Origin: Microlunatus endophyticus
Lineage (GTDB): Bacteria > Actinomycetota > Actinomycetes > Propionibacteriales > Propionibacteriaceae
Reading direction: 5' to 3'
DNA length: 64,000 nt
Assembly: GCF_014646195.1 (NCBI RefSeq)
Contig: NZ_BMMZ01000005.1
Location: 124,001-188,000, forward strand
Positions 1 through 19,377 of this stretch are shown one piece after another. The notes under the pieces were generated by a model, which was not told the DNA's origin, ran no database searches, and worked only from the letters and a program-made list of their open reading frames with translations. A program made the position numbers and the translations under genes. Numbering within the stretch: the first letter of the stretch is position 1; every line of letters begins with the position of its first letter.

Positions 1-471
1 GTCGATGTTCTCGTCGTGCTCACCGATCGGCGCCTTGGTGGCGGGGGTGAAGATCGGCTCGGGCAGCCGGGAACCGTTCTGCATTCCGATCGGCAGCTCG
101 ATGCCGCAGACCGTCCGGGTGCGCTCGTACTCGGCCCAGCCCGAACCCATCAGGTAGCCGCGGGCGACGCACTCGATCTCGATCATCTCGAGCTTCTCGC
201 AGATCACCGCACGCCCGGCGACGGCCTCGGGCACGTCGGTGGACACGACGTGATTCTCTACATCCCGCAGCTGGTCGAACCACCACAGCGACATCCGGGT
301 GAGAATCTCGCCCTTGTCGGGGATCGGCGGGGTCAGCACGAAGTCGAACGCGGAGATCTTGTCGGTGGCGACCATCAACAGCCGGTCGTCGCCGATCGCG
401 TACAACTCGCGCACCTTGCCGGCGTGCACCAGGGGGAGGTCGACAACGGACCCATAAAGCGATTCAGACAT
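1..471 (-). CDS. purC: SAICAR synthase PurC, C-terminus cut by window edge
   Basis: Phosphoribosylaminoimidazole-succinocarboxamide synthase joins CAIR to L-aspartate with ATP in de novo purine synthesis, in the cytoplasm. The first 157 codons are visible and the frame runs off base 1. The N-terminus has the family pattern: HAGKVRELY (nucleotide loop), TDKISAFD, PDKGEILT and the ECVARGYLMGSG signature followed by PEPIFTPATKA. The ATG at 471 has AAGGTG just upstream. It reads in the same direction as purB, purD and purA but is separated from them by about 14.7 kb of transporter genes. It is the ordinary actinobacterial PurC type and is distinct from the second PurC domain at 5625-6959. Confidence 0.96.
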   Translation of the reverse strand, partial: MSESLYGSVVDLPLVHAGKVRELYAIGDDRLLMVATDKISAFDFVLTPPIPDKGEILTRMSLWWFDQLRDVENHVVSTDVPEAVAGRAVICEKLEMIEIECVARGYLMGSGWAEYERTRTVCGIELPIGMQNGSRLPEPIFTPATKAPIGEHDENID

Positions 472-531
472 CGACTGCACCTTACCGGTGCCGGGCCGCG
501 GTTATCGATGTGATCAGATCTTCGCCGGGAA

Positions 532-1325
532 TCAGGCGACGTCCTGGCGGACGGTGGTGATGATGCCGACGACCGCCGGGATGACGGCCCATCCGAGGAG
601 CACCAGCAGGCCGGCCCAGGCCGGCCAACCGGCACCGCCGGGTGCAGCCGCCCCGATCGCGCTGGTGGCGTCGACCCCCAGCAGCGTCGACGTGGCACTG
701 CTGGGCATCAGATTCGCCGGCACCGTCCAGTGCTGGAGGGCGAAGATCACGCTGATGATCGGCTCGATGATGTAGGCGAAGCCGACCGCGATCAGGACCG
801 AGGCAAGCATGTTCTTGATCAGGATGCCGAATCCGAAACCGATCATCGCCCAGAGTGCGATCGCGACGATGTTGAGCAGCAGCGCCTGCCAGGTCCCCCG
901 GTGGCCCAGCGCCAGGCTGCCGTTCTTGATCAGGACGAAGACGGTCGCGACGATGAATCCGGCTACCGTGGCGACCAGGCCGAAAGCCAGTCCGTAGCCG
1001 AAGGTGACGATCGCCTTGCCGCCGACCACTTTCGTACGGTTCGGGACGGCGAGATAGCTGCTGGACAGGGTCTTGTAGCGGAATTCCTGGCCCATCATCA
1101 AGGCACCGGCGATGATCGCCACCACCCGCGCGGCCTGATTGTTGCCGGTGTAGATCGCGGCGATGAACTCCGGATGGGTGAAGACGTTCCCCTCGGTCGG
1201 TCCGATCAGCCCGACGAGGGCGAAGATGCCGGAGAAGACCAACGAGACACCGGCCGTGATGCAGATCATGATGATCCAGCCGCGGGTCGTGGCGATCTTG
1301 CGGACCTCGGATGCCAGCACCGTCG

Positions 1326-1329
<4 letters not shown>
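532..1329 (-). CDS. ABC-2 type transporter permease
   Basis: A 265-residue membrane protein and the likely permease partner of the ATPase at 1326-2501. It shows about six hydrophobic segments, for example around residues 18-40, 65-80, 105-130, 150-175, 180-200 and 235-255. An early TTRGWIIMI stretch resembles the start of ABC-2 permeases that export drugs, lipids or peptides. Its ATG overlaps the ATPase stop (ATGA), so the two are translationally coupled. No enzyme domain is visible and the substrate cannot be read from sequence. purC begins about 60 bp downstream in the same direction, so readthrough into purC is possible. Confidence 0.88.
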
Positions 1330-2501
<1,172 letters not shown>

Positions 2502-2713
2502 GTCCCAAGTCCCCCTGCCGCGTCCGCTCACCACATCCACCCACCGCAACTACGGTGATCTTGTACGACGCTAGGCGGTCGAAGGGTCGGCCGCATCCGT
2601 CGCGAGTCGGATCTTCACAGGGGAATCCCCAGGATCTGTCCCTGACCTCGCCCGGGACCGTGGCCCGAACCCTCGATCTAGACACTGAAATGCGGCACAG
2701 TGGAGGCATCGAC

Positions 2714-2743
2714 GCGGCCGGACCGGCCGCGCTGGCAACCAGC
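2714..2743 (+). promoter_or_regulatory. Two adjacent hairpins in the pspC-like gene leader
   Basis: GCGGCCG-GAC-CGGCCGC (2714-2730) is a perfect 7-bp stem. It is followed at once by GCTGG-CAA-CCAGC (2731-2743), a 5-bp stem. Both lie just before the AAGGAA ribosome-binding site of the small gene at 2759. They could control access to that site, but no known riboswitch class is recognised. Confidence 0.4.
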
Positions 2744-2758
2744 AGAAGGAAACCTGAC

Positions 2759-2941
2759 ATGCCCACCCTCGCCCGTCCTCGCAACGACCGCATGATCGCC
2801 GGTGTCTGCTCGGCCCTGGGCCGGCGGTTCGGAATCCCGACCAACATCGTCCGGCTGATCTTCGTGCTGAGCTGCCTGCTGCCGGGCCCGCAGTTCATCC
2901 TCTACATCATCGGCTGGGTGCTGATCCCCAACGAGCGCTGA
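2759..2941 (+). CDS. PspC-domain small membrane protein
   Basis: A 60-residue protein that is almost entirely one PspC domain. It shows LARPRNDRMIAGVCSALG, GIPTNIVRLIFVLS and a C-terminal hydrophobic segment ending IGWVLIPNER. The family occurs in phage-shock-type membrane stress systems and as stand-alone small proteins in actinobacteria; no pspA or other psp gene is adjacent. The ATG at 2759 has AAGGAA about eight bases upstream. It is convergent with the ABC ATPase gene ending at 2955. Its role here is unknown. Confidence 0.9.
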   Translation: MPTLARPRNDRMIAGVCSALGRRFGIPTNIVRLIFVLSCLLPGPQFILYIIGWVLIPNER

Positions 2942-2954
2942 CTGCTGACCCTGC

Positions 2955-3929
2955 TCAGGACTCGATCGACTGGTGGTAGAGCGTGCGGACGATGTCCTCG
3001 ATCGCCGGCTCGGTCAGTGTCAGGTCCCTGACCTCGGCAACGGCGCTCACCTCGGCCAGCACCATCGCCGCGGTGGTCTGGTCCGGTGCGAACGAAAAGC
3101 TCTGCCGGGCGCCGTTCAACTCGGTCCCGACGTTGACGGCGCTCGGAACCTCCAGCCCCGGCTGGGGCTCGGCCAGGTCGACGACCAGGACCCGCTGCAG
3201 CGCCACCCGCCGGGACAGTCCGCGGAGTGTTCCGTCGTAGGCGAGCTTTCCATGATCAACGACGAGCACCCGTTCGCAGAGTCGCTCGATATCGCTCATG
3301 TCGTGGGTAGTCAGCAGCAGTGTGGTGCCTTCCTCGGCTCGTTCGGTGATCAGGAACTGTCGTAGCCGCTCCTTGCTGATCATGTCCAGCCCGATGGTCG
3401 GCTCGTCCAGGATCAACAGCCGCGGCCGGTGCACCAGGGCAGCCGCGACCTCACCCCGCATCCGCTCCCCCAGGGACAGCTGCCGGACCGGAGTGCTCAG
3501 GAAGGCCTGCAACTCGAGACCCTCGATCAACTGCTCGATCCGCGGTCTGGCCCGTGCCGCCGGCAGCCGGTGGATCGCGGCCAGGATGTCGAAGGACTCC
3601 CGCAGCGGCAGGTCCCACCACAGCTGGCTGCGTTGACCGAAGACGACACCGATCTCCCGGGCGAGAGTCCTGCGCTGCGGCACCGGCTCATAGCCGCAGG
3701 TCCGGACCCGTCCACCACTGGGCACCAGAATCCCAGTCAGCATCTTGATCGTGGTCGACTTGCCGGCGCCGTTGGCCCCGATGTAGCCGACCGCCTCGCC
3801 GGCGTCGATCCGTGCACTGATGCCGTCGACGGCATGCACCTCGCGGGCGACCCGGCGAAGGCCACCGGTCCGCGCCCGCACGATGAAGGTGCGGCGCAAT
3901 TCGTCCAATTCGATGATGGCATCGCTCAT
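2955..3929 (-). CDS. ABC-2 exporter ATPase (COG4586-like)
   Basis: A 324-residue ATPase with Walker A GANGAGKST, signature LSLGERMRGEVAAALV, Walker B LILDEPTIGLD and H-loop TTHDM. The first 50 residues carry the extra REVHAVDGISARI segment seen in the uncharacterised three-part exporters of one ATPase and two different permeases (COG4586/4587/3694). Related systems have been linked to export of toxic cations such as viologens. It is the last of three minus-strand genes after the permeases at 3941 and 4770. ATG 3929 is chosen over a GTG three codons upstream. Confidence 0.9.
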   Translation of the reverse strand: MSDAIIELDELRRTFIVRARTGGLRRVAREVHAVDGISARIDAGEAVGYIGANGAGKSTTIKMLTGILVPSGGRVRTCGYEPVPQRRTLAREIGVVFGQRSQLWWDLPLRESFDILAAIHRLPAARARPRIEQLIEGLELQAFLSTPVRQLSLGERMRGEVAAALVHRPRLLILDEPTIGLDMISKERLRQFLITERAEEGTTLLLTTHDMSDIERLCERVLVVDHGKLAYDGTLRGLSRRVALQRVLVVDLAEPQPGLEVPSAVNVGTELNGARQSFSFAPDQTTAAMVLAEVSAVAEVRDLTLTEPAIEDIVRTLYHQSIES

Positions 3930-3940
3930 GGTCAACACGC

Positions 3941-4777
3941 CTACCCTCCGGCTCCGGTGTAATGACGTACGCCCCGGCGCCACACCACGGCGGCGAGCAA
4001 CCAGGTCCAGCCCGCGAAGACCGGCGGCAACCAGCCCAACCAGGCCGGCAGCCAGCTCGGACCGTCCATTCCCAACATGATCAAACACGGCACGTACGCC
4101 GTCGCCGTCACCGGGAAGACGAAGGTGAAGAGCACCCGCAGCGGCAGCAGCAGTGCGCTGCCGGGCAGGTGTCCGGCGTACGAGCCCCCGTAGACAAAGG
4201 AATTGGTGAATTCTGATCCGTCGACGATCCAGAACTGCAGACCGCCGGCGAGCACGAACAGAGCGCCGTAGATGGCGGCACCGTAGAGCGGCGTGGTGAT
4301 CAACAAGTAGATGGTCGCGGCGTTGAAATCCAGGTGCACCCAGAACAGGACGATCACCGCGATCAGCAGTCCAAGGAAGGCACGGCCGACGCGACGCAGC
4401 TGGAAGTCCGCGGTGATCATCTGCGCCAGCAGCGGCATCGGCCGGATCAGGAACGCCTCGAGCTTGCCCTCCCGGATGTAGCGCGGGATGGTGTCGGTCT
4501 GGCCGAAGATCAGATCCGCGATACTCCACCCCAGGTTGGCCAGACCGAAGACCAGCGACGCCTGCGCGAAGTTGAGCCCGCCGAGGGTCGGGGTGTTGGT
4601 GAGCAGCACATAGGTCTCGACGAATTCGAGCACGCCGGTGAAGAAGGAGTTGACGGTGTTGATCCAGAAGCTGGACCGGTAGGTCATCTGGGCGCGCAGT
4701 CTGGAGGCGAGCAGGATCGCGTACGACTCCCGCTTGGTGACCAGATCGGTCGTCGGCGGGGATACCAGTTCAGCCAC
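3941..4777 (-). CDS. ABC-2 exporter permease (COG3694-like)
   Basis: A 278-residue integral membrane protein with about six hydrophobic segments. It contains the YIREGKLEAFLIRPM stretch common to permeases of this uncharacterised ABC-2 exporter family. The start at 4777 overlaps the end of the preceding permease by 8 bp, and the ATPase gene follows 11 bp after its stop, so the three form one operon. The two permeases probably make a heterodimer. The substrate is unknown. Confidence 0.88.
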   Translation of the reverse strand: MAELVSPPTTDLVTKRESYAILLASRLRAQMTYRSSFWINTVNSFFTGVLEFVETYVLLTNTPTLGGLNFAQASLVFGLANLGWSIADLIFGQTDTIPRYIREGKLEAFLIRPMPLLAQMITADFQLRRVGRAFLGLLIAVIVLFWVHLDFNAATIYLLITTPLYGAAIYGALFVLAGGLQFWIVDGSEFTNSFVYGGSYAGHLPGSALLLPLRVLFTFVFPVTATAYVPCLIMLGMDGPSWLPAWLGWLPPVFAGWTWLLAAVVWRRGVRHYTGAGG

Positions 4778-5570
4778 CCTGCACCACCAATCGGGACGAG
4801 CCGCGCCACAGCATCAGCCTGGTAGCCGCGGCCAGCACGATCGTCCAGACCAGCTGCACGCCGACCACCCGGAGCGCGGCCGCACCGACCACCCTGCCGG
4901 ACATCACGTCGATCGGGCTCTGGAACATCGACGGGAACGGCGACGCGGTGGCGATCACCTGCAGCCATCCCGGGAAGATGTGCACCGGCACGTAGAAGCC
5001 GCTGAGCAGCGACATCAGCAGCATGTAGAGGCTGGTGTAGCCCTGGACATCGATGGTCCACAGGCTGATCAGATTCACCCCGTAGCGCAGCAGGAAGCTG
5101 ATCGAAACCGCCAGCGCCAGGCTGATCAATCCGAGCGGAATCGCCCACAGGGAGGACGAGAACGCCAGCCCGGTGGTGACCGCGCCGATGATCACCGGCA
5201 ACAGGCCACGGGCCGGGATCATCAAAGCCGCCCGACCGAAGTCCCTTGCCCAGTAGGAAAGTTGGAGGTCGATCGGCCGGGACAGATCGATCGCGATCTC
5301 ACCGGTCTGGACTCGTTCGGAGACCTCATGGGTGCCGAGCAGCCCGATACCGGCGAGCAGACCCTGGCCCAGCCAGACGTAGGTGGACGCTTGAGCCCGG
5401 TCGTAGCCGGCGATGGTCCCGCCGGCTCCGACCAGGGCGGCGTAGAAGACGCTGAACCGGATGAACCCGAAGACGGTGTTGGCACTGATGCCGGCGGCCA
5501 GCGCGAGCCGGTAGGTGCTCTGCCGCCGGAACTCTGCCGAAGCGAGGAGAAGGTAGCGGCGCACAATCAC
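4770..5570 (-). CDS. ABC-2 exporter permease (COG4587-like)
   Basis: A 266-residue membrane protein and the first gene of the exporter operon. It has an N-terminal SAEFRRQSTYRLAL amphipathic stretch, about six hydrophobic segments, and the GEIAIDLSRPIDLQLSYWARDFGR region that matches the equivalent loop in its partner permease. The GTG start at 5570 lies immediately after a good promoter (5574-5602), which implies a leaderless transcript. The MerR-PurC fusion gene ends 54 bp upstream in the same direction. Confidence 0.88.
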   Translation of the reverse strand: MIVRRYLLLASAEFRRQSTYRLALAAGISANTVFGFIRFSVFYAALVGAGGTIAGYDRAQASTYVWLGQGLLAGIGLLGTHEVSERVQTGEIAIDLSRPIDLQLSYWARDFGRAALMIPARGLLPVIIGAVTTGLAFSSSLWAIPLGLISLALAVSISFLLRYGVNLISLWTIDVQGYTSLYMLLMSLLSGFYVPVHIFPGWLQVIATASPFPSMFQSPIDVMSGRVVGAAALRVVGVQLVWTIVLAAATRLMLWRGSSRLVVQGG

Positions 5571-5573
5571 GCG

Positions 5574-5602
5574 ACGTTACGACTCCGGATCGGCGGCGTC
5601 AA
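5574..5602 (-). promoter_or_regulatory. Promoter of the ABC-2 exporter operon
   Basis: On the minus strand, TTGACG (5602-5597), a 17-bp spacer and TAACGT (5579-5574) match the housekeeping-sigma consensus. The start codon is only three bases beyond the -10 box, so the mRNA would be leaderless or nearly so. The spacer is normal, not the stretched 19-20 bp typical of MerR-activated promoters. Confidence 0.6.
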
Positions 5603-5624
5603 CAGCTTTTTGCGCTGCCCTGGG

Positions 5625-6959
5625 TCAGCCGCCGAGGACTTTCACCACCCGCTCGCTCGCGGTCAGCTCTGAAGGCTCGAAGGATCGCTGGGTCAGCTCC
5701 TCCGCAAGGAGGATGTAGCGGGTCGCTGTCGCGATCCGTACGTCGTCGGACAGGATCGGCGGTTCTCCCTCGCCGTGGAAACCTCGCTCCACCATCCACT
5801 CCCGCAACGGCTCCTTGTCAAGTGCTCGCTGCTCCTGTCCGCTGCGGAACAGTTCCTGGTAGGTGTCTGCATACCAATAGCGCGAGCTGTCGGGTGTGTG
5901 AACCTCATCGATCAGCACGATCTCGTCGCCGAGCAGCCCCAGCTCGTACTTCGTGTCGACCAGGATCAACCCGCGTTCGGCAGCGATCTCGGTGCCCCGG
6001 GCGAACAACTGGAAGCAGATTTCGGCGCAGCGGTCGAACAGCTCGGCTGTGATGAGGCCGCCGGCGATCGCCTCCGAACGACTGAGGTTTCGATCGTGCT
6101 CCTCGAGCTTGGTCGTCGGTGTCAGGATCGGATCCGGCAATTGCTGGTTCTTGCGAAGCCCGTCGAGCAGTCGGTTGCCCGCGATACTTCGTGTCCCGGC
6201 CTCGTAGTTGATCCACAGCGATGTGTTCGTGACGCCCGTGATGTAGCCACGGACAACGAATTCCAGCGGCACCGGCGTGCACTCGCGGACCCGCCAGACA
6301 TTCGGATCGGGCGCCTCGATCAGGTGATTGCGGACGATATCTGCGGTGGCGTCGAACCAATACTTCGCGATTGCGTTGAGGATCTGCCCCTTGAACGGGA
6401 TCGTTCCCACCAGCCGGTCGAACGCCGACAATCTGTCGGTGGTCACGATGGTGCGAACATCCCCGTCGACGTAGCTGTCACGGACCTTCCCCTCGTGCCG
6501 GGCACCCAGGTGGTCGAAGTCGGTGCGGTCGAGAGCCCCGCGCACTTCCCTGGCGAATCTCTCGCTGCTGATCAACGGCGCTCCCTCGTCCACGCGTAGC
6601 GATGACTCCACGACATCCTCTCTTTCGATCATCCGGTCCATTGCGTCCACCTGCGCAGCCGCCCGGCGAGCCGCCTGGGTCAAGCGACGGCGGTGCTCGA
6701 CCAGCCGCGCCCGGCGGGCCCCTCGATCCGAGGTGTCGACGATGGCGGCGACCTCCTCGAGGGGCATCCCGACGTCCCGCAGGACGGCCAGGGTGCGGGC
6801 GCGCGGCAGTTGGCGCAGTCGGTAGCGGCGGTAGCCGGTGCGGTCATCGACCTCCGCCGGCACCAGGAGGCCGATCTGGTGGTAATGCCGCAACGTGTCG
6901 ACGGTCAGTCCCGACAGCTGCGCGAATGCGCCGATTCCGATCCATTCATCAGGGGCCAC
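5625..6959 (-). CDS. MerR-type regulator fused to a complete SAICAR synthase (PurC) domain
   Basis: A 444-residue two-domain protein in one uninterrupted frame. Residues 1-75 are a MerR winged helix (IGAFAQLSGLTVDTLRHYHQ, then RYRLRQLPRARTLAVLRDVG). Residues 78-114 are an Arg/Ala-rich helix like the MerR dimerisation coil. Residues 150-440 are a PurC domain of the longer type: HEGKVRDSY (155-163), LEFVVRGY (232-239), LVDTKYELG (333-341) and HTPDSSRYW (354-362), so the substrate-binding signatures are intact. MerR proteins usually carry a ligand-sensing C-terminal domain; here PurC occupies that place. The protein may sense CAIR, SAICAR or a nucleotide, or be an enzyme that controls its own gene. 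The GTG start at 6959 fits a leaderless promoter. An exporter operon lies downstream. Confidence 0.9.
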   Translation of the reverse strand: MAPDEWIGIGAFAQLSGLTVDTLRHYHQIGLLVPAEVDDRTGYRRYRLRQLPRARTLAVLRDVGMPLEEVAAIVDTSDRGARRARLVEHRRRLTQAARRAAAQVDAMDRMIEREDVVESSLRVDEGAPLISSERFAREVRGALDRTDFDHLGARHEGKVRDSYVDGDVRTIVTTDRLSAFDRLVGTIPFKGQILNAIAKYWFDATADIVRNHLIEAPDPNVWRVRECTPVPLEFVVRGYITGVTNTSLWINYEAGTRSIAGNRLLDGLRKNQQLPDPILTPTTKLEEHDRNLSRSEAIAGGLITAELFDRCAEICFQLFARGTEIAAERGLILVDTKYELGLLGDEIVLIDEVHTPDSSRYWYADTYQELFRSGQEQRALDKEPLREWMVERGFHGEGEPPILSDDVRIATATRYILLAEELTQRSFEPSELTASERVVKVLGG

Positions 6960-6996
6960 ACCGATACGGTGCCATCCTCGTCCGCCCGAGAGTCAA
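6959..6996 (-). promoter_or_regulatory. Candidate MerR-type promoter and dyad for the MerR-PurC gene
   Basis: Minus-strand TTGACT (6996-6991) lies 19 bp from CACCGT (6971-6966). The long spacer is the hallmark of promoters activated by MerR proteins. The perfect dyad CACCG-ATA-CGGTG (plus strand 6959-6971) covers this weak -10 box and touches the GTG start, as expected for autoregulation. The -10 match is poor, so this is a suggestion only. Confidence 0.35.
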
Positions 6997-7093
6997 CACC
7001 GGCGCGGGGCGAAGACGCAGAGTGCCCAGGAACCGACGCCGGTCGCGAGAAACTGCGTCGCCTGTTCGGTACGCCGGCGCTTACGATCCTGGG

Positions 7094-8077
7094 ATGTCGG
7101 AGCGCGGAGTCGGGGCACCGTCTGACGTCGACCGAGGCCAGCACCTGGCCGCTCTGCACGGTGCATGGACGACGCCGATGGACGTCGTGGCGTCGGTGGT
7201 CGGCGAGGTGACGAGGGCGCCGATCATCAACTCCCGCAGGATTCTCGACGGCGAGCAGAACGAGGTCTACGACGTCACGATGGAGCGGGCCCCATCCGTG
7301 ATCGTGCGGATCGCGCATGACGGGGCCGAAAGCCACGACCGGGAGGCGTGGGTCGTCGGCGAGTGCAGGGCACGAGGCATTCCGGCTCCCCGGGTTCACG
7401 CCGTTCGTCGCATGGAGGTCGACGGCGAGGTCCGGTCCGTGATGGTGATGGAGAAGCTGCCGGGCGAGCGACTCGCCGATCTTGGTCCGGACGAGGTCAA
7501 CGTTCGCCGCGTCCTGCGAGAGGTTGGGGAATGGCTGAAGCAGCTCCACGCCATCCCGGTGCACGGCCTCGGCAATCTGGACGGCTCCGGCGTCGGCGAG
7601 TTCGCCACCCCGGATCAGTGGCTGGCCAACGTGACCGGTCGGGCGAAGGAGTTCGAGGAAGCCGGTCGGTCCGTCGGGCTCGCACCCGCGATGATCCATG
7701 GATGGTTGCGGGAGATCGTCGACACGTTCCGTACGGCTCCACCTCGGATGATCATGAGCCACAACGATCTCTTGGCTATCCATGTCCTGGTGCACGACGG
7801 AAGGCTGTCGGGGATCATCGACTTCGGTGTGGCCGCAGCGGAACCCGTGGCCAACGACTTCGCCAAATGGGACTTCCGAGAAGGGTCACGATTCCCGGTC
7901 GAGTGGATCCTGGACGGCTACGGCGATCCCGGGATGTTCCGGACGCCGAACGATCGCAGCTACCGTGCACTCTGGCTGCTCCACGGGCTCTGGTATCTGC
8001 GCCACTACCACGTGACCGGGTTACCTGCCGGAGTCGAAGCAGGCCGCGACCGACTGCTGAGTGGAGTCCATCGATAG
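7094..8077 (+). CDS. Aminoglycoside phosphotransferase-family kinase-like protein
   Basis: A 327-residue protein of the APH/choline kinase fold. The N-lobe covers roughly residues 35-115, with EKLPGERL as the hinge region. The catalytic loop is SHNDLLAIHVLV (222-233) and IIDFG is at 241-245. Family members have HxDxxxxN, where Asn binds magnesium; here that Asn is replaced by His230, although His223, Asp225 and Asp243 are kept. Activity may therefore be altered or lost. A TACGAT box ends about seven bases before ATG 7094, so the gene may be leaderless. It is divergent from the MerR-PurC gene. No resistance phenotype should be inferred. Confidence 0.82.
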   Translation: MSERGVGAPSDVDRGQHLAALHGAWTTPMDVVASVVGEVTRAPIINSRRILDGEQNEVYDVTMERAPSVIVRIAHDGAESHDREAWVVGECRARGIPAPRVHAVRRMEVDGEVRSVMVMEKLPGERLADLGPDEVNVRRVLREVGEWLKQLHAIPVHGLGNLDGSGVGEFATPDQWLANVTGRAKEFEEAGRSVGLAPAMIHGWLREIVDTFRTAPPRMIMSHNDLLAIHVLVHDGRLSGIIDFGVAAAEPVANDFAKWDFREGSRFPVEWILDGYGDPGMFRTPNDRSYRALWLLHGLWYLRHYHVTGLPAGVEAGRDRLLSGVHR

Positions 8078-8110
8078 TGCCTGGATCACGACCCGACCAC
8101 TGCCGGCCAG

Positions 8111-8710
8111 TCATGGGTGGGGCGGGAACGCCTGGTCACTTCCGTCTGGCTGGCGGGCGGAGCCAGCCGGAGGATGATCGTCCGGGAGGCGCACAAGCGG
8201 CCCATCGCCGTACCGGTTCAGATCCCACAACGAGAACGTCGGACCATCGCCGGGTTCCTGGCGAAGAAAGTCTGCGGTCGACTGCGAACCGGGAAAGACA
8301 CCGGCACTCAGCACCAGGTCGATCGCCTCTCGCAACGGCACGAATCGTGCCTCGATGATCAAATCGTCAGGATCATCGGGCGTGAAGCTGTCCTCCGTGA
8401 CCTCGCCAAGATCAACATTGAACGCCAGAAACAACAGCGGCTGATCACGTCCGGGCGCGTAATGCTGGGTGCCGAACGCCAGCGAACCGACCGATCTCAC
8501 CACCAACCCGGTCTCTTCCTCGACCTCGCGCCTGACAGCAGCATCGAGCAGCTCACCCGGCTCGAGGCGTCCACCCGGCAACACCCACTGGTCCGGTCCT
8601 TCACCGCCAAGAGTGTGCTCATGAACCAGCAAGATCTCGTCGCCGCGGCGGGCAACACCACCGACAACCATCGCCGCGCGTGTCCAGCCATCCGAAGCAT
8701 CATCGCTCAT
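8111..8710 (-). CDS. Nudix hydrolase
   Basis: A 199-residue cytoplasmic hydrolase of nucleoside diphosphate-linked compounds. The complete Nudix box begins at PGGRLEPGELL and ends in RREVEEETGL. The N-terminal strand MVVGGVARRGDEILLVHE and the WVLPGG lead-in are typical. The last 30 residues are Pro/Asp-rich and probably disordered. The substrate cannot be inferred; adjacency to a 2H phosphoesterase suggests nucleotide or RNA-end clean-up. It is probably the third gene of an operon with 8759-9328 and 9357-10256. Confidence 0.9.
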   Translation of the reverse strand: MSDDASDGWTRAAMVVGGVARRGDEILLVHEHTLGGEGPDQWVLPGGRLEPGELLDAAVRREVEEETGLVVRSVGSLAFGTQHYAPGRDQPLLFLAFNVDLGEVTEDSFTPDDPDDLIIEARFVPLREAIDLVLSAGVFPGSQSTADFLRQEPGDGPTFSLWDLNRYGDGPLVRLPDDHPPAGSARQPDGSDQAFPPHP

Positions 8711-8758
8711 CGTCAGCCTCCTGTGCCGAACCCTAGATGATCATCGACGCGCATCGCA

Positions 8759-9328
8759 CTACCCCGATCGCGACGATGAAGCGGATCCGGCGAGTGGCGC
8801 GTCGTGGCAGAGCGACCAGCGGCCTCCCGGCGCTTCCTGCGTCCAGATCGACACACTCCTGACAAGTGCATCAATTGGACGAAATGATGCTCGGAATCGC
8901 CCGGCCAATGGCTCGCCGCCGCGACGTGCAACGCTGAGGTGCCAGACGTGGTCGGCCCGAACGCCGCCGAACTCTGCGAATCCGTGCGCAACGGCCGCCA
9001 GCAAGCGATCAAGATCGACACTTGATTCCGGTGCCAGATAGACCGTTCCCTGAGGGAAGGTCCGGACGTCTGCGAACCGGACCATGAACTGATCGAGTCC
9101 AGCGACGCAGCCGCGGAGCCTGTCCCGGGCAGCCTCCCCTGATGGATCCGTACAGGCCGGCGATGCCATGGTCATATGTGGCGGGATCACCTCCGCGAGG
9201 CTCAAGCCATCACCCGCAGGCAATCGCGAAACGCTACGAAGCGGGTCCACGACACCGCGCAGGTCGTCAAACGTCACCAACACTGCCGAATCCACAATCA
9301 CGATCGTGCCAGGAAGTCCCTCGGACAT
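8759..9328 (-). CDS. 2H phosphoesterase / 2'-5' RNA ligase-like protein
   Basis: A 189-residue protein with the two short motifs of the 2H superfamily: HMTM in IPPHMTMASP and HLSV in WHLSVARRGG. These supply the two catalytic histidines that act on 2',3'-cyclic or 2'-5' phosphodiester bonds. The length matches stand-alone actinobacterial members. The start is ATG 9328 (MSEGLPGTIVIVD); the open frame continues upstream but that stretch looks non-coding. It lies between the Nudix gene and the cyclase-repeat gene, all on the minus strand. The physiological substrate is unknown. Confidence 0.75.
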   Translation of the reverse strand: MSEGLPGTIVIVDSAVLVTFDDLRGVVDPLRSVSRLPAGDGLSLAEVIPPHMTMASPACTDPSGEAARDRLRGCVAGLDQFMVRFADVRTFPQGTVYLAPESSVDLDRLLAAVAHGFAEFGGVRADHVWHLSVARRGGEPLAGRFRASFRPIDALVRSVSIWTQEAPGGRWSLCHDAPLAGSASSSRSG

Positions 9329-9356
9329 GATCGTCGGCAGGAAGCTCTGACTTTGA

Positions 9357-10256
9357 TCACAGACCGCCGCTGCGGAGAATGCGCACCGCTTGGACGGTTG
9401 CATAGCCGCGCCACTCCAAGGCGGACGCCGGGCTGAATGTCTGGTAGTCAACGGTCCAGCCGCCGTCGGGCTGTTGTTGGCCCGCCAGCCGCTCAAGGTC
9501 CTTCGCCACTGCCGCCGACCCGAATACCGCCCGCGACGGCGCATCGGCGTACGGCGTGAAGTCCAGCAGGTGCAGCGCTTCGCCCTCTGCCCCACCAGCG
9601 ACCGGAGTCGGCCCGTCACTGATCACCCGGCCGGCGTACGGGTCCACCAACTCGGCGGCACGCCGGTTCACCCCTGCGGCCGCGTCGAGGAAGCGCAGCA
9701 CAAACATCAACTCGTACGGGTTCGGCTCCCGCAGATCCGCGATCGCGAACAGGCAATACTCGGTGGCGCCGGCCAGCCAGGGGTGGCCGGCCACATCCGG
9801 CCGTAGGGCCGCCAGCCGGTGCGCCTGGGCGGCAAGCTGGGCTGTCATCTGCAGCGACGACACCGACGCATCGGCGTCCCTCCAGTGCGGTGCCTCCCCT
9901 TCGGAGTCGGCATGACCAAGCCCGAACGGCAGACCTCCATCCGCCAGGGCATGCTCGGCCAACCAATCGCAGATCTCGCGTGGCCGCGGGGTGAACACAT
10001 CGCGGATGTCAGCCAGGACCTCCAATGCGTGCATCGCACCAACCGGTTGACTCGTCCGCGACCTGAGGTCAGGTTCCAGTGCCCACCCGTAACCGCCGTC
10101 GGGGTTCCGGTACCCGTCCAACGCGGCCACCACTGCGGCAGTATCGCCATCGTCTCCCAGCACCACGCTCAGCCGGCGACGATCGATCACGCGAGCGTGC
10201 GTCGCGGAAAACGCCCTCGCAGCTCCAGGATCCCATCGCATGCGCCCATCATTCAT
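9357..10256 (-). CDS. Prenyltransferase/squalene-cyclase repeat protein, function unknown
   Basis: A 299-residue protein of alpha/alpha-barrel type. Repeat-like motifs include NPDGGYGWALEPD near the start, DGGLPFGL in the middle and QQPDGGWTVDY near the end, which are QW-type repeats of the terpene-cyclase/prenyltransferase fold. No DXDD cyclase motif is visible and it is about half the length of a hopene cyclase, so cyclase activity is unlikely. ATG 10256 is the only good start. It is the first gene of a minus-strand trio with the 2H phosphoesterase and Nudix hydrolase. Confidence 0.78.
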   Translation of the reverse strand: MNDGRMRWDPGAARAFSATHARVIDRRRLSVVLGDDGDTAAVVAALDGYRNPDGGYGWALEPDLRSRTSQPVGAMHALEVLADIRDVFTPRPREICDWLAEHALADGGLPFGLGHADSEGEAPHWRDADASVSSLQMTAQLAAQAHRLAALRPDVAGHPWLAGATEYCLFAIADLREPNPYELMFVLRFLDAAAGVNRRAAELVDPYAGRVISDGPTPVAGGAEGEALHLLDFTPYADAPSRAVFGSAAVAKDLERLAGQQQPDGGWTVDYQTFSPASALEWRGYATVQAVRILRSGGL

Positions 10257-10343
10257 GTCTGCACTGACAACGTCCCCGGATCCGCACCGAGATCTGGCAA
10301 AACCCGATTGCGTGTCCGGCAGCTTCTGCCCGACTCTGGCGCA

Positions 10344-11232
10344 GTGACCCTCCCGAACGTCGAAGCCTTGTTGTCCGCGCCGCGCGGACGGGGATTGTGC
10401 TTGGCAATCGCCGGCGGCGTCGATGAGCAGGTTCATTCCGCGTGGTCGCAGGCCGCCTGGCAGCCGGGCAACGACCGGCTGCTGGACAATCTGGTCCAGT
10501 TGCTCGCCGACATCGATCCGAGCCCGATCCCGGATTGGACCGACCCGCTGGCATTCGCCGATCCGATGGACCTCACCGTGTCGAGCGCGATGGGCTGGCA
10601 GGAACCACATCCGGAAGACGTCATCAGCCGAGCCGCACCAGTCGTTGCGGCCCTCGGTCCGATCGGCGAGGCCGTGGTGTCGGCGCCCGGCGCGAGGTGG
10701 TGGCCGACCGCCGTAGACCTCGACGCACTCCGCTACACCAGCCGGTTCGACCGCCACGACAAGTTGCACCCGCCTGTAGACCCGACTCTTGGCGACACCA
10801 CCACGCGCCTCGAGCGGTGGCGTGCAGCCGAGATGCAGACCAACCAGCGGGATCGTCGGCTGCTGTCCGCCGACCCAGCCGCGAACTACAGCGGGCACTG
10901 GTGGTCGATTCCCGCCCTCAGCGGACTGATCGCCACCACGAGACAGCTACCCCGACTTGGGGCGATCAAGTTGATCTGGGAGGAGGACAGCCCTGGCGAC
11001 GCCGACGACTGGGACGGCGTCCACCTGACCGTGATCCGGCTACCTGACCACCGCCACCCGATCGCTGGCTGTCACCGACGAGGCCGCGACCGTGCTGGCG
11101 GGCTGGGACCCCGACCAGACCTGGTGGCTGACCGACATCCTGCGCGTGGCCGGCCCAGCACAGCGCTGGCACAGCCCGGACGACGCCGCAAAGGACTACG
11201 CATGGCGCCTGGAGCCACCGGACTCCGAATGA
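10344..11232 (+). pseudogene. Conserved hypothetical protein gene broken by a frameshift near 11040
   Basis: From GTG 10344 a coherent protein runs for about 233 codons (TLPNVEALLSAPRGRGL through DDWDGVHLTVIRL). The frame then degenerates into Arg/Pro/Gly-rich translation. In the next frame, from about 11044, a natural C-terminus appears (LTTATRSLAVTDEAATVLAGW, then WWLTDILRVAG, ending EPPDSE and TGA at 11230-11232). Joining them needs a one-base shift between about 11031 and 11044. The product would be about 295 residues, Trp-rich, with no domain I recognise. Either the gene is a recent pseudogene or the sequence has an indel error. Confidence 0.6.
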
Positions 11233-11358
11233 TCCGCCTTATTGGCCCACGGAACGGACGACCGCACCAAGATCATCGGACCACGGGGTTCGCCGCGAGC
11301 CGCGACCATGATCGCCCACACGCCGCAGGGCCAACAATGACACCGCTCTGATGCCAGT

Positions 11359-11411
11359 TTGACGTCATTGTTGGTTGACATGGCGTCATAGTGATGTCAC
11401 GATGGCGCCAT
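11359..11411 (+). promoter_or_regulatory. GTCA-rich putative operator/promoter of the ABC exporter pair
   Basis: An AT-richer stretch before the ABC gene has TTGACG (11359-11364), TTGACA (11375-11380), GGCGTCATAG and GATGTCAC, so GTCA half-sites recur in both orientations. The 10-bp palindrome ATGGCGCCAT (11402-11411) covers the start codon. No Shine-Dalgarno sequence is visible. The exact -10 box could not be settled. Confidence 0.35.
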
Positions 11412-13353
11412 GCCTCTGTCAGCCGCCTCGCAGACCCGCTCCGGACGCGCCGTCAGGACACGGATCGCCTCGATCGCGCCGGTCGGCCGCTCCTACCTCA
11501 GCCATGCGCAGTTGCTCTGGCTGACGGCACCGGCCGCCTCACTGGCCGCGCTGATCCTCACTCTGATCGGAGCGGCCGCCTCGACAGCCGGCATTGTGCT
11601 GCTCGGAAAAGTGATCGGGTCCGGGGTAGCAGCGGTCGGCCATCCCGGGTCGGCGGCCTCCCATCAGGCGATGATGTGGCTGGTCTGGCTGGCGATCAGC
11701 TTCCTGGTCCCGCCGGTCGTCGGCGGCGTGATCAACGTGCTCAGCCAGCACATCACCTCCGCGGCCGCCGCCCGGGTGGCCGCACTGACATCCGAATATG
11801 CCAATTCCCCCAGCGGGATCGAGCACCTCGAGGAACCGGACGAGTCACGCCGGCTGCATCGGATGGTGCAGGCAATCGGCGAATGGACCTACCTGGAAGG
11901 GATCGCCGGCACCTGGACGGTGCTGCAGACCCGATTGAGCGGTATCGGCGCCTTCGCGGTGATCGTGACCTGGCACTGGTGGGCCGCGCTGATCTTGGTC
12001 ACCGGTTACCTGGTCACCGGCCGGGCACTCACCGCCTGGTTGTTGTCGATCTTCGCCGACATGGCCCTCGATCCACCGATCGAGCGCCGCCGGGCCAGTT
12101 ATCTCTTCGACACCCTGATGAAGGCCGACGCAGCCAAGGAGATCCGGCTGTTCGGCCTGCCCACGTGGATGATCGAGCGTTACGGCACGATGTGGCGGCA
12201 AGCGATGACCGACGTCTGGCGCCGTCGCAATGCGACGATCGGGCCGGTGCTGTCCAGCACGATCGTGATGGCCGCCTGCACAGCGCTGTTCTACGCGGTC
12301 CTCGGCCATGAGGCCTGGACCGGCGCCATCCCGGCAGCGACAGTCACTGCCCTGGTCGGGGCCTCGGTCGGCCTGCAGGCGCTCGGAATGCTGGGAGATG
12401 AGCAGGTGCTCTTCAGTCAGGCGATGGCCACGACCGAGCGGGTGCGTACGGCCCGACTCCAGGTCAAGCTCCCCGGCCTCCGATATGCCGAGGGGTCACA
12501 AATTCCTCCATCTGTGCGACGTGTCGACGATCCTGCGGTCGCCCCGGCGGAGATCGTGATCCGCGATCTGCACTTCAGCTATCCGAGCCGGGAGACGGCG
12601 GTCTTCGACGGACTCGATCTGAGGATCCCGGCGGGCCAGTCCGTCGCGATCGTCGGCGTCAACGGCGCCGGCAAGTCGACCTTGATCAAGCTGCTCTGCG
12701 GCCTCTACCGACCGGACTCCGGTGCGGTCCTGGTCGACGGTGCCGATCCCGCGACCGACCCGTCGGCCCGCGACCGAGTCGCGGTGATCTTCCAGGACTT
12801 CGTCCGCTACCAGCTGTCGCTGAAGGAGAACGTCGCCCTGGGTGCTCGCGGCGCAGCCGACATCGATGCCGTGATCCGTACTGCCCTGCATGATGCCGCC
12901 GGCGACGATGTCCTGGCCCGGCTCGGCGACGATTGGGATGTCGTGCTCTCCGGTGAATACGCCGGCGGCACCGATCTCTCCGGTGGCCAGTGGCAGCGGG
13001 TCGCGCTGGCCCGGGCGTTGGCCGCGGTCGCCGGCGGATCCGGAGTGCTGGTATTGGACGAGCCGACCGCGGCCCTGGACGTACGGGCCGAGGCACAGCT
13101 GTTCGACCGGTTCCTGGAGGTGACGCGCGGGATGACCACCGTCCTGGTCAGCCACCGGTTGAGCTCCGTACGCCACGTCGACCGGATCGTGGTGATCGAG
13201 GACGGACGGATCGTCGAGGACGGCAACCACGACCAGCTGCTGCAGCGCGGCGGCCGCTACGCCGACATGTTCACCTTGCAGGCCAGCCGGTTCGCCACGG
13301 CCTCCGGGCGGTCCACCGAGTCCGCCGCGATCGCTGAAGGAGCAGTCCGTTGA
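11410..13353 (+). CDS. ABC half-exporter (fused membrane and ATPase domains), subunit 1
   Basis: A 647-residue type IV ABC exporter. About residues 35-345 are a six-helix membrane domain and 375-620 are the ATPase. The ATPase has Walker A GVNGAGKST, signature TDLSGGQWQRVALARAL, Walker B LVLDEPTAALD and H-loop VSHRLSS, all consensus, so this site should hydrolyse ATP. The stop TGA overlaps the start region of the next gene, which encodes a second half-exporter, so the pair probably forms a heterodimer. No peptide or lanthipeptide precursor, maturation enzyme or C39 peptidase domain is present nearby. The substrate is unknown. Confidence 0.92.
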   Translation: MPLSAASQTRSGRAVRTRIASIAPVGRSYLSHAQLLWLTAPAASLAALILTLIGAAASTAGIVLLGKVIGSGVAAVGHPGSAASHQAMMWLVWLAISFLVPPVVGGVINVLSQHITSAAAARVAALTSEYANSPSGIEHLEEPDESRRLHRMVQAIGEWTYLEGIAGTWTVLQTRLSGIGAFAVIVTWHWWAALILVTGYLVTGRALTAWLLSIFADMALDPPIERRRASYLFDTLMKADAAKEIRLFGLPTWMIERYGTMWRQAMTDVWRRRNATIGPVLSSTIVMAACTALFYAVLGHEAWTGAIPAATVTALVGASVGLQALGMLGDEQVLFSQAMATTERVRTARLQVKLPGLRYAEGSQIPPSVRRVDDPAVAPAEIVIRDLHFSYPSRETAVFDGLDLRIPAGQSVAIVGVNGAGKSTLIKLLCGLYRPDSGAVLVDGADPATDPSARDRVAVIFQDFVRYQLSLKENVALGARGAADIDAVIRTALHDAAGDDVLARLGDDWDVVLSGEYAGGTDLSGGQWQRVALARALAAVAGGSGVLVLDEPTAALDVRAEAQLFDRFLEVTRGMTTVLVSHRLSSVRHVDRIVVIEDGRIVEDGNHDQLLQRGGRYADMFTLQASRFATASGRSTESAAIAEGAVR

Positions 13354-15131
13354 TCACCATGATCAAGTCCATCGCCCTGGTGGTCGCCGCCTCGATCCGG
13401 GTCAGCCCTCGGCAGAGCCTGGTCTGCCTGCTGGAAACCCTCGGCAATTTCGTCGGGATGCTGCAGCCGCTGTTCATTGCCTGGCTGGTGACCGGCGCCA
13501 TCCAGCACGACGGAAGCTTGGTGATCAGGGCGCTGATCTGTTTCGTCGTCTCCCTGACCGTCGTCAGCGTGCTGATGATCATCGGTAACAACGCCCGGAT
13601 CTCCCAGTACGAACGGGTCGGCTTCTGGTTCGACACCGAGATCTCCCGGCTGACCTCATCGATCAGCACCCTTGATCATCTGCAGAGTGCCGAATACCAG
13701 GATAAGGCCCAGACCCTGCGCGATCATCAGGGCCTGCTGGGCTTCGCGTTCAACATGGTGCTGAACGCGCTGCGGATGGCGGTCCAGGGTGGCGGAACGC
13801 TGGCCTTGGCGCTGACCGCGGATCCCCGGATGCTGCTGGTGGTGATCGCCGGCGTTCCGGCAGTGATCACCGCACGCTGGACCAGCCGGTGGCAGACCCA
13901 GACCGACGACGCCTCCGCCCAGCCCAGCCGGCAGGTCAAGCACCTGCTCGACCTGGCCGTCCGGCCCGGCCCCGGAGCCGAGGTCCGGGTCTTCGGACTG
14001 CAGTCCTGGCTGCGCGATGCGACCGCAGCGGCGACCCGCCGCTGGTTGGACCTGCGAGTGGCGCTGGCCCGGCGGCAGGCGATCGTGCAGACCTCGACGT
14101 CGGTCTTCTTCTTCGCCGTTGCGGGCATCGTGCTGGCCTGGATCCTGCGGGACACCATCGCCGGCGCAGTCCCGGTCGCCGCGTTCGTCCTGGCCGCGAG
14201 CCTGGTGACTCGGCTGCAGATGACCAGCGACGTGTTGCAGTGGTCGATGCGGGTGCTGATCCGGGTCGGCAACGACGGCGGGCGATTCCTGTGGCTGCGG
14301 GACTATGCCGCCGAACAGCAGGCCCAGCACACCGGCACGGCAACGCCGCCCCGACGGCTCCGCGCCGGGATCAGCACTATCGGTCTCGGCTACAACTATC
14401 CCGGCGCCGAGAAGCCGACGCTGAGCGATGTGAATCTCGACCTGCTCGCTGGCGCGGTCGTGGCCGTCGTCGGCGAGAACGGGGCCGGCAAATCCACCCT
14501 GATCGGACTGCTGACCGGGATGCTCACTCCGACCGAAGGCCGGGTGCTCGTCGACGGTGTCGACCTGAATGATCTTGATCATCAGCAGTGGCGGGCAAGG
14601 ATGTCAGGCGCCTTCCAGGACTATGCGCGGCTGGAGCTGCTCGCCCAGGAGTCGATCGGCGTTGGTGATCTTGACACTCTGGACAGCGAGACCGCCGTGC
14701 ACGCGGCGCTGGACCGGGCGTCGGCGACGGACGTGCTGACCGCACTGCCGACCGGTCTGCAGACCCAGCTGGGCACCACCTGGCCGGGCGGTGTCGAACT
14801 CTCCGGCGGTCAGTGGCAGCGGCTCGCGATCGCGCGCGGGATGATGCGCGAGAGCCCTCTGCTGCTGGTGCTGGACGAGCCGACCGCCGCACTGGACGCC
14901 GGCACCGAACACGCGCTCTTCGAGCGGTACGCCGATGCCGCCCGCCGGGCCGGCGGCCGAGGCGGCGTGACGCTGCTGGTCACCCATCGGTTTTCGACCG
15001 TCGCGTCGGCCGATCTGGTCGTGGTGCTGCGGGAGGGCCGGGTCGCCGAGGTCGGCACCCATGCCGAGTTGTACGCGGCCGGCAGCCATTACGCCGAGTT
15101 GTACGACCTGCAGGCTCGGGGATATCGCTGA
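13350..15131 (+). CDS. ABC half-exporter (fused membrane and ATPase domains), subunit 2
   Basis: A 593-residue partner of the preceding protein. The membrane domain is at about residues 8-320 and the ATPase at 335-590. Walker A GENGAGKST, signature VELSGGQWQRLAIAR, Walker B LVLDEPTAALD and H-loop VTHRFST are all intact, so neither nucleotide site of the heterodimer looks degenerate. TTG 13350 overlaps the previous stop; ATG 13359 is an alternative that removes three residues. It is followed by a short repeat (15132-15150) and the convergent purB gene. Confidence 0.92.
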   Translation: MITMIKSIALVVAASIRVSPRQSLVCLLETLGNFVGMLQPLFIAWLVTGAIQHDGSLVIRALICFVVSLTVVSVLMIIGNNARISQYERVGFWFDTEISRLTSSISTLDHLQSAEYQDKAQTLRDHQGLLGFAFNMVLNALRMAVQGGGTLALALTADPRMLLVVIAGVPAVITARWTSRWQTQTDDASAQPSRQVKHLLDLAVRPGPGAEVRVFGLQSWLRDATAAATRRWLDLRVALARRQAIVQTSTSVFFFAVAGIVLAWILRDTIAGAVPVAAFVLAASLVTRLQMTSDVLQWSMRVLIRVGNDGGRFLWLRDYAAEQQAQHTGTATPPRRLRAGISTIGLGYNYPGAEKPTLSDVNLDLLAGAVVAVVGENGAGKSTLIGLLTGMLTPTEGRVLVDGVDLNDLDHQQWRARMSGAFQDYARLELLAQESIGVGDLDTLDSETAVHAALDRASATDVLTALPTGLQTQLGTTWPGGVELSGGQWQRLAIARGMMRESPLLLVLDEPTAALDAGTEHALFERYADAARRAGGRGGVTLLVTHRFSTVASADLVVVLREGRVAEVGTHAELYAAGSHYAELYDLQARGYR

Positions 15132-15150
15132 CCCTTCGACAAGCTCAGGG
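15132..15150. repeat. CCCTTCGACAAGCTCAGGG element between convergent genes
   Basis: This 19-bp partial palindrome (CCCT...AGGG) starts immediately after the ABC exporter stop and lies 9 bp from the purB stop. The same word is familiar as an intergenic repeat in many GC-rich bacteria, where it tends to follow genes. A role as a bidirectional transcript end is plausible but not proven. Confidence 0.6.
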
Positions 15151-15158
15151 AGCCTGGA

Positions 15159-17842: not shown

Positions 17843-17950
17843 CTCAGCTCCAAGCTCTGCCACGTCCACCTAGCCTACCGAGCGGATCCGGGTGACAGCG
17901 ATTCCGCGGCGCCAGACCCGAGCGGGGAGCGCGGCGGCGGCTGCCCGCGC

Positions 17951-19264
<1,314 letters not shown>

Positions 19265-19267
19265 TTA

Positions 19268-19296
19268 AGTCCCGCACACCACAAGGCTGCGGGACT
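19268..19296 (-). terminator. Hairpin between the sugar-transport operon and purA
   Basis: AGTCCCGCA (19268-19276) and TGCGGGACT (19288-19296) form a perfect 9-bp stem with an 11-base loop. Read on the minus strand it follows the solute-binding gene ending at 19378 and is trailed by TTAACAATT. It may end that operon or act as an attenuator in the purA leader. No purine riboswitch core is visible. Confidence 0.55.
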
Positions 19297-19377
19297 CTTG
19301 CGACCAGAGTCTATCGGACCGTCCTCAGCAGCCAGTCCAGTCGGGCCAGCCGGCCGGGCCCCAGCTGGAACGCGGAG

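What the first reader, a model, noticed from the sequence alone, without database searches (positions are those of the whole stretch)
5625..6959. MerR DNA-binding domain fused to an intact SAICAR synthase
One uninterrupted frame encodes a MerR winged helix, a helical linker and a complete PurC domain with both family signatures (LEFVVRGY at 232-239, LVDTKYELG at 333-341) and HTPDSSRYW. MerR proteins normally end in a small ligand-sensing domain; I know of no characterised case where a purine-pathway enzyme fills that place. The window also holds the ordinary purC, so this copy is free to specialise. It is followed by an ABC-2 exporter operon. Possible roles are a sensor of CAIR, SAICAR or adenylate that controls export, a trigger enzyme regulating its own gene, or a resistance or nucleoside-analogue function.
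Basis: partly seen in the sequence, partly recalled or inferred. Interest (0 to 1): 0.85.

Follow-up and report, generated by a model that had tools for sequence, protein, structure and literature searches.

The report
Self-regulated MerR–SAICAR synthase fusion gene
A rare bacterial gene joins a MerR DNA-binding switch to a complete purine-making enzyme and carries a matching switch site in its own promoter, so it probably turns itself on when the enzyme part binds its ligand.

Summary
Window 6959–5625, minus strand, is one 444-codon frame: MerR winged helix, long helix, short linker, complete SAICAR synthase domain. An 85%-identical intact copy (G006) shows purifying selection over both halves. 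The PurC half belongs to another PurC lineage than the housekeeping purC and keeps the 14 active-site residues compared.

The five copies with a 5' end share a MerR-type promoter: TTGACT, then a 19-bp spacer holding a dyad. With up to 3 mismatches, the element's only site in this genome is at the gene itself. Homology between copies stops near the −35 box and at the stop codon; no neighbour is convincingly shared.

The exporter link fails: in five relatives the exporter sits beside housekeeping purC with no fusion there.

Six loci were found; four are damaged (frameshift, stop, deletion, remnant beside an IS21-type element), so the gene is accessory.

Best reading: a single-gene autogenous switch that works like TipA, with an enzyme as sensor/effector and possibly an enzyme-only product from an internal start. 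DNA binding, ligand and activity are untested. New variant of a known kind.

The parts
5625..6959 (-). MerR–SAICAR synthase fusion gene, GTG start at 6959, TGA at 5627–5625, 444 aa
   Evidence: 85% identical intact copy in G006
6735..6935 (-). MerR winged-helix DNA-binding domain (residues 9–75)
   Evidence: Pfam MerR_1/MerR; best solved relative of this half: TipAL N-terminal domain 2vz4, E 7.4e-13
6621..6725 (-). long helix (residues 79–113), position of the MerR dimerisation helix
   Evidence: predicted helix 79–113 (pLDDT under 50 from residue 103)
5628..6533 (-). SAICAR synthase (PurC) domain, residues 143–444; best curated model NF009251/PRK12607
   Evidence: Foldseek PDB ranks 1–38 are SAICAR synthases or PAICS
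6991..6996 (-). -35 hexamer TTGACT
   Evidence: identical in 5 of the 5 loci that retain the 5' end
6974..6993 (-). candidate MerR operator, 20-bp imperfect dyad (6 of 10 pairs here; 8, 7, 7, 8 in G006, G012, L058, G041)
   Evidence: the only match with up to 3 mismatches in this genome
6966..6971 (-). candidate -10 hexamer CACCGT, 19 bp after the -35; the GTG start begins 7 nt after it (leaderless layout)
   Evidence: weak hexamer, chosen by spacing
6609..6611 (-). candidate internal GTG start (codon 117) for a 328-aa PurC-only product; SD-like GAGAGG at 6622–6617
   Evidence: GTG/GTG/GTG/ATG with SD-like sequence at the equivalent codon in 4 of 4 copies that retain it; suggestive only

Best explanation
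A single-gene autogenous switch. The MerR half dimerises through its long helix and binds the dyad in the 19-bp spacer of its own promoter (6996–6966), leaving it poorly active; when the PurC half binds a ligand of its active site (most plausibly CAIR, ATP or an analogue) the dimer distorts the DNA and activates transcription, so more enzyme is made. The PurC half is probably still a SAICAR synthase, so the gene supplies an extra, ligand-inducible purine-pathway enzyme (or a buffer for the ligand). A second, PurC-only product from an internal start is possible. Shown: fused frame, purifying selection on both halves, conserved MerR-type promoter, no second operator site in this genome within 3 mismatches, conserved active-site residues, varying neighbours. 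Inferred: DNA binding, autoregulation, catalysis, internal start. Guessed: the ligand.
For: Intact second copy; dN/dS 0.06–0.18 in all three parts. Upstream DNA is unrelated except for a block from TTGACT onward, conserved in 5 of 5 copies with a 5' end; its layout (19-bp spacer with a dyad) matches the published description of MerR promoters (PMC9909328, passages). Operator pattern with <=3 mismatches in 16 genomes: one 0-mismatch site in each of G000, G006, G012 and G041, each upstream of the fusion. Homology ends at the stop codon and neighbours differ, so the conserved target is the gene itself. Fourteen of the 24 active-site residues listed for human PAICS (PMC9376930, passages), matched by eye through motifs, correspond to K158, R160, T174, E233, K284, D289, K337, E339, D351, D357, S358, R360, K382, R386; all are invariant in 17 of 17 aligned sequences. 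Precedent: TipA, an autoregulated single gene with two products (PMC7762955, passages).
Against: No binding, expression or enzyme data. The dyad is weakest (6 of 10) in the window's own copy and the -10 is poor. In G041 the only in-frame start seen overlaps the proposed -10 (by eye). 4 of 6 loci are damaged. Fusion PurCs have a loop two residues shorter before D289, and the preceding His, present in 13 of 13 non-fusion rows, is Arg in 2 of 4 fusions, so activity may be altered. Score 366.2 is just under the NF009251 cut-off of 371. Sites beyond 3 mismatches were not searched; G006, G041 and fusion-less G009 have one 3-mismatch site each, against two hits of the reversed-pattern control over the 16 genomes. 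The DNA-binding half is modelled with low confidence.
Confidence: 0.6

Rival explanations
1. Resistance version of the same switch: the PurC half senses or resists an antimetabolite of purine synthesis (an aspartate or nucleotide analogue made by competitors), and self-induction supplies a tolerant or sequestering enzyme. This would explain the patchy spread and frequent loss.
For: Promoter-plus-gene unit at unrelated places; patchy (4 of 20 genus genomes; one record titled Solirubrobacterales MAG), often damaged; DNA-binding half nearest TipA, EcmrR and SkgA among solved structures; long stem of the fusion clade, 1.18 changes per column.
Against: No inhibitor known here; no conserved biosynthetic or resistance neighbour; the compared catalytic residues are unchanged.
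Confidence: 0.2
2. The PurC half is only a sensor; the protein is a regulator of other genes such as the downstream exporter.
For: In this genome exporter genes start 54 bp downstream on the same strand; some MerR proteins control efflux genes (PMC9909328, passages).
Against: Exporter block collinear with housekeeping purC in five genomes with no fusion there; homology there reaches window 5609, 5613, 5609, 5568 and 5579 (G006, G007, G012, G010, G002), covering a possible exporter promoter at 5602–5574 in three of the five; no other operator match in this genome within 3 mismatches.
Confidence: 0.06
3. Two proteins in practice: MerR is a degenerating leftover and the working product is PurC from the internal start at codon 117.
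For: GTG or ATG with SD-like sequence at the equivalent codon in 4 of 4 copies; product length 328 aa, 12 standalone relatives 317–343 aa with starts chosen by my script; in G012 and L058 MerR is broken while the PurC frame is open.
Against: MerR domain dN/dS 0.06 in the two intact copies, the lowest of the three parts; other in-frame start codons score as well for an SD; SD bases lie in conserved codons.
Confidence: 0.1
4. A dispensable relic without present function.
For: 4 of 6 loci damaged.
Against: Low dN/dS between the two intact copies.
Confidence: 0.04

Closest known systems
TipA class of MerR regulators (TipAL/TipAS)
   Same: MerR half plus C-terminal ligand-binding half in one gene; autoregulated single gene (PMC7762955, passages). 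The TipAL N-domain 2vz4 is the best solved relative of the DNA-binding half. Possible second C-terminal product.
   Different: C-terminal domain is SAICAR synthase; no TipAS domain reported by Pfam. Second product and induction not shown here.
Trigger enzymes with a DNA-binding domain (PutA, BirA, NadR)
   Same: A metabolic enzyme joined to a DNA-binding domain; PutA represses its own gene (PMC8249747, passages).
   Different: Different DNA-binding fold (recalled) and different enzyme; substrate control not shown here.
SAICAR synthase, NF009251 (PRK12607) model
   Same: Best curated match of the PurC half (366.2 bits, E 1.1e-109), compared catalytic residues kept.
   Different: Just below the curated cut-off (371); fused to MerR; loop shortened by two residues.
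BmrR/EcmrR-type MerR regulators
   Same: MerR DNA-binding domain.
   Different: Effector domain differs; no conserved efflux neighbour here.

Membership tests
MerR regulator family | N-terminal MerR winged helix | tested here: met
   PF13411 and PF00376 above cut-off
MerR regulator family | long dimerisation helix after the DNA-binding domain | tested here: inconclusive
   helix 79–113 predicted, but pLDDT is low in its last third and dimerisation was not modelled
MerR regulator family | dyad in an unusually long (19–20 bp) promoter spacer | tested here: met
   spacing from the published description; -10 weak, dyad 6 of 10 in the window copy
MerR regulator family | binds the operator and activates by DNA distortion | not testable with these tools
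   needs bench work
SAICAR synthase (PF01259) | near full-length domain above the Pfam cut-off | tested here: met
   214.4 bits against 20; positions 3–221 of 233
SAICAR synthase (PF01259) | residues for ATP, Mg, CAIR and Asp | tested here: met
   14 of 24 listed positions compared, by motif; all invariant in 17 of 17; the other 10 were not compared
SAICAR synthase (PF01259) | catalyses CAIR + Asp + ATP to SAICAR | not testable with these tools
   no assay
NF009251 equivalog | score at or above the curated cut-off 371 | tested here: not met
   366.2 bits
TipA class | TipAS effector domain (PF07739) | tested here: not met
   not among the three Pfam matches at E<=0.001; it may work like TipA but is not a member
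TipA class | operator in its own promoter | tested here: met
   by sequence only
TipA class | second, C-terminal translation product | tested here: inconclusive
   SD-like site and start codon at the equivalent codon in 4 of 4; other start codons score as well
Trigger enzyme | active enzyme whose ligand state controls DNA binding | not testable with these tools
   active-site residues kept; no binding data

The most novel reading that the evidence does not exclude
A minimal, horizontally moving, one-gene device in which a purine-pathway enzyme serves at once as sensor, switch and effector: the active site of a SAICAR synthase reads CAIR, a nucleotide or a toxic analogue, the MerR half turns on the gene's own leaderless promoter, and an internal start releases extra free enzyme. 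It would be a TipA-style system built with a catalytic enzyme.
Probability: 0.25. Interest if true: 0.82.

Novelty: new variant of a known kind. Interest (0 to 1): 0.62.

Why it matters
I know of no regulator that uses SAICAR synthase as its sensing domain, and four searches of the open library listed none. If it works as proposed, MerR's DNA-distortion switch can be driven by a biosynthetic enzyme; it would be a candidate sensor of CAIR or SAICAR and a gene-sized unit whose promoter and protein travel together. The question is directly testable with one protein and one 40-bp DNA.

Tried and rejected
Exporter partnership: rejected on synteny. Duplicate of housekeeping purC: rejected by the tree. 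Plasmid or phage gene: 0 of 39 plasmid records and 0 of 14 phage records with a match cover 80% of the query; of the 15 plasmid rows listed all start at residue 127 or later; one phage record matches residues 1–78 only. Viral contigs: no relative by protein, no exact match to the operator pattern. RNA element: no Rfam match at gathering threshold in window 1–20000. tRNA genes: none in L033–L037, two tRNA-Val in L058 about 3 and 5 kb from the gene. The standard promoter scan of 5400–7200 found none; it only allows spacers of 16–18. A wide tblastx comparison was too noisy to use and was replaced by blastn. Naming the standalone relatives by NCBIfam did not help: NF009251 matches 17 of 17 rows of A4, the housekeeping PurC included, and best models per row are not shown, so 'PRK12607 type' for those rows rests on the tree alone.

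Limits. The only scan of the genome collection used two short peptide patterns and finds near relatives only. The surveys used strict E cut-offs (1e-55 to 1e-70), so a MerR fused to a housekeeping-type PurC would be missed there; (96 genomes, E 0.001) showed none beyond this clade, but its match list was cut, and one row there (G007, 4331064, query 38–429, 36%, one TGA inside) I take to be its housekeeping PurC with an alignment reaching upstream of it. Genome sets overlap. L045 was left out of A4 and the tree because my script found no frame with the chosen motifs; 11 of the 22 loci L011–L032 were used in the tree; G041 and G007 were left out of A4, G007 out of the tree. Gene calls at the loci came from my own script (GC3 bias), not an annotation. 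The MAG record may be misbinned.

Full report
WHAT IS THERE. Window 6959–5625 on the minus strand encodes 444 residues without a stop. Pfam finds MerR/MerR_1 within 9–75 and SAICAR_synt at 155–391. The best curated model for the second half is NF009251 (PRK12607; 366.2 bits, cut-off 371). The DNA-binding half is nearest, among solved proteins, to the TipAL N-terminal domain 2vz4 (E 7.4e-13), then EcmrR and SkgA. The predicted structure (17-row alignment, mean pLDDT 76.6, pTM 0.69) has a winged-helix layout, a helix at 79–113, a stretch under pLDDT 50 at 103–127 and a mostly confident PurC domain; much of the DNA-binding part is low confidence. Foldseek's ranks 1–38 in the PDB are SAICAR synthases or PAICS (first 1obg, E 1.1e-24; 2cnq 2.2 Å rmsd); MerR proteins follow from rank 39 with rmsd near 20 Å.

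THE GENOME HAS ANOTHER PURC. The own genome holds two SAICAR_synt genes: the fusion and a 293-aa housekeeping purC about 5 kb away, followed by a gene that I read as purQ (that name is my reading). In a 29-row tree the five fusion PurC domains form one clade (100/100), on the side of 12 standalone PurCs and apart from 12 housekeeping-type rows (100/100 on either side). The stem of the fusion clade is 1.18 changes per column, the longest inner branch. I call the standalone group 'PRK12607 type' from the tree only (one search does not separate the models).

DISTRIBUTION AND STATE OF THE COPIES. Fusion-clade sequence is in 4 of 20 genus genomes (G000, G006, G012, G007; a fifth hit, G004, is a standalone PurC at 48%), in 5 of 198 family genomes (those four plus G041), and no further fusion appears among 391 genomes of the order, 396 of the phylum and 394 of the class (overlapping sets, strict cut-offs). 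The scan of the genome collection gave one more, L058, in a record titled Solirubrobacterales MAG, 78% identical; in 299 genomes of that MAG's class it was the only hit at E<=1e-70. So six loci. G000 and G006 are intact. G012 lacks 4 bp about residue 55, just after the wing, and goes on in another frame with PurC open. L058 has a TAG at residue 43. G041 has a MerR part and a PurC part in different frames, without residues about 114–187. G007 keeps only 279–442, next to a transposase and IstB pair of IS21 type. G006 lacks the window's GTG in frame but has a TTG 9 nt upstream of the aligned part.

SELECTION. Between the two intact copies dN/dS is 0.06 (MerR), 0.18 (linker helix) and 0.14 (PurC). 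Both halves have been kept as protein.

PROMOTER. In G000, G006, G012 and G041 the sequence upstream is unrelated except for a block beginning at TTGACT; L058 has the same block. It reads TTGACTCTCGGG in 5 of 5, then GAGnnT as dyad partner, then, 19 bp after the -35, a hexamer of the form nAnnnT (CACCGT, GACGGT, GACCGT, GATACT, AACAGT). By eye, an in-frame start codon begins 6 or 7 nt after that hexamer in four copies (TTG in G006, GTG in G000, G012 and L058); in G041 the in-frame GTG overlaps the hexamer. The 20-bp dyad pairs 6, 8, 7, 7 and 8 of 10 positions (G000, G006, G012, L058, G041); 7 or more occurs at 0.9% of positions of the window, and the window's own copy, at 6, is the weakest. 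Spacers of 19–20 bp that contain the dyad are the published mark of MerR promoters (PMC9909328, passages). Three TTGAC sites in the window have 6 or more dyad pairs; one is this. In 16 genomes, with up to 3 mismatches, the element has one perfect site in each of G000, G006, G012 and G041, each at the fusion; three 3-mismatch sites are in G006, G041 and G009; the reversed-pattern control gave two in all. The 3-mismatch sites are thus at background level. Weaker sites were not searched.

NEIGHBOURS. In 19-kb regions around five fusion loci no neighbouring gene was shared between fusion loci except an ABC-type similarity at about 28% identity. L058, compared later over 13 kb, shares with them only the fusion region and one weak match to G006 at 32%, probably the RibD-type genes there; I take its other matches to be alternative frames of the fusion, not checked one by one. 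Downstream sequences diverge after the stop codon (by eye). The shared unit is therefore promoter plus gene. The exporter permease is in 14 of 20 genus genomes. blastn shows the exporter block and housekeeping purC collinear in G006, G007, G012, G010 and G002, with homology to G000 ending at window 5609, 5613, 5609, 5568 and 5579, while their fusion is elsewhere (G006 at 4.22 Mb, exporter at 5.06 Mb; G012 at 3.88 and 3.60 Mb), a remnant elsewhere (G007) or not found (G010, G002). In G007 the DNA matching window 5613 is followed after 48 bp by DNA matching 11374, so 5614–11373 is extra in G000 or lost in G007. A possible exporter promoter lies at 5602–5574 (TTGACG, 17 bp, TAACGT; only 3 of 6 consensus bases in the second hexamer, and the scan did not report it).

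ENZYME. Of the 24 active-site residues modelled for human PAICS (PMC9376930, passages) I matched 14 by motif, by eye: K158, R160, T174, E233, K284, D289, K337, E339, D351, D357, S358, R360, K382, R386. All are invariant in 17 of 17 rows of alignment A4 (four fusions, 12 standalone, one housekeeping). Changes special to the fusions include a two-residue shorter loop before D289, F340 to Leu, loss of a Gly near 345, and H288 to Arg in 2 of 4, besides other substitutions listed. L058 has RAY for RGY and G041 RGH. I expect activity but cannot show it.

INTERNAL START. Codon 117 is GTG with GAGAGG five bases upstream; the equivalent codon is GTG, GTG, ATG in G006, G012, L058, with SD-like stretches (5, 5, 6, 5 of 6 matches to GGAGGA in G000, G006, G012, L058). 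R113 is AGA or AGG in 3 of 3 copies that have Arg there, although 4 of 51 Arg codons of the window gene are AGR. A product from there is 328 aa; 12 standalone relatives are 317–343 aa with starts chosen by my script. Other in-frame start codons also score 5 of 6, so this is a hint only.

READING. The anatomy fits an autogenous MerR switch with an enzyme in the sensor position. TipA is the published example of a self-regulated gene that serves as sensor, activator and neutraliser through two products (PMC7762955, passages); PutA is an enzyme that represses its own gene (PMC8249747, passages). The ligand is a guess: CAIR, ATP or an analogue, since these bind the PurC site. Searches of the open library for MerR with SAICAR synthetase, PurC, trigger enzymes or fused domains listed nothing on such a protein (listings only); a review of purine-pathway regulation does not contain the word MerR (PMC10912719, passages). 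A paper on M. abscessus PurC was seen in passages only (PMC6501894). I therefore call it a new variant of a known kind, rare and often lost, with a clear test.

Noticed in passing
window 5614–11373: A 5.8-kb stretch (fusion, an APH-type phosphotransferase at 7091–8077, a NUDIX gene at 8111–8710, others) that is absent between the homologous flanks in G007; possible genomic island.
   Followed up: partly
L037 8411–11100 (G007): Remnant of the fusion (residues 279–442) next to a transposase and IstB pair of IS21 type.
   Followed up: partly
L010, L008, L009 (G004, G065, G074); L060: Standalone PurC of the same lineage by the tree; G004, G065 and G074 also have a lower-scoring PurC match elsewhere, so theirs is an extra copy of unknown function. 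L060's genome was not checked for a second copy.
   Followed up: no
L036 9800–10915 (G041): 371-aa class II tRNA synthetase-like protein (PF01409) beside the broken fusion copy; may be a paralogue of PheS.
   Followed up: no
window 11410–15131: Two adjacent genes (647 and 593 aa) that I read as ABC exporters; DNA matching window 11374–13000 lies next to the other exporter block in G007.
   Followed up: no
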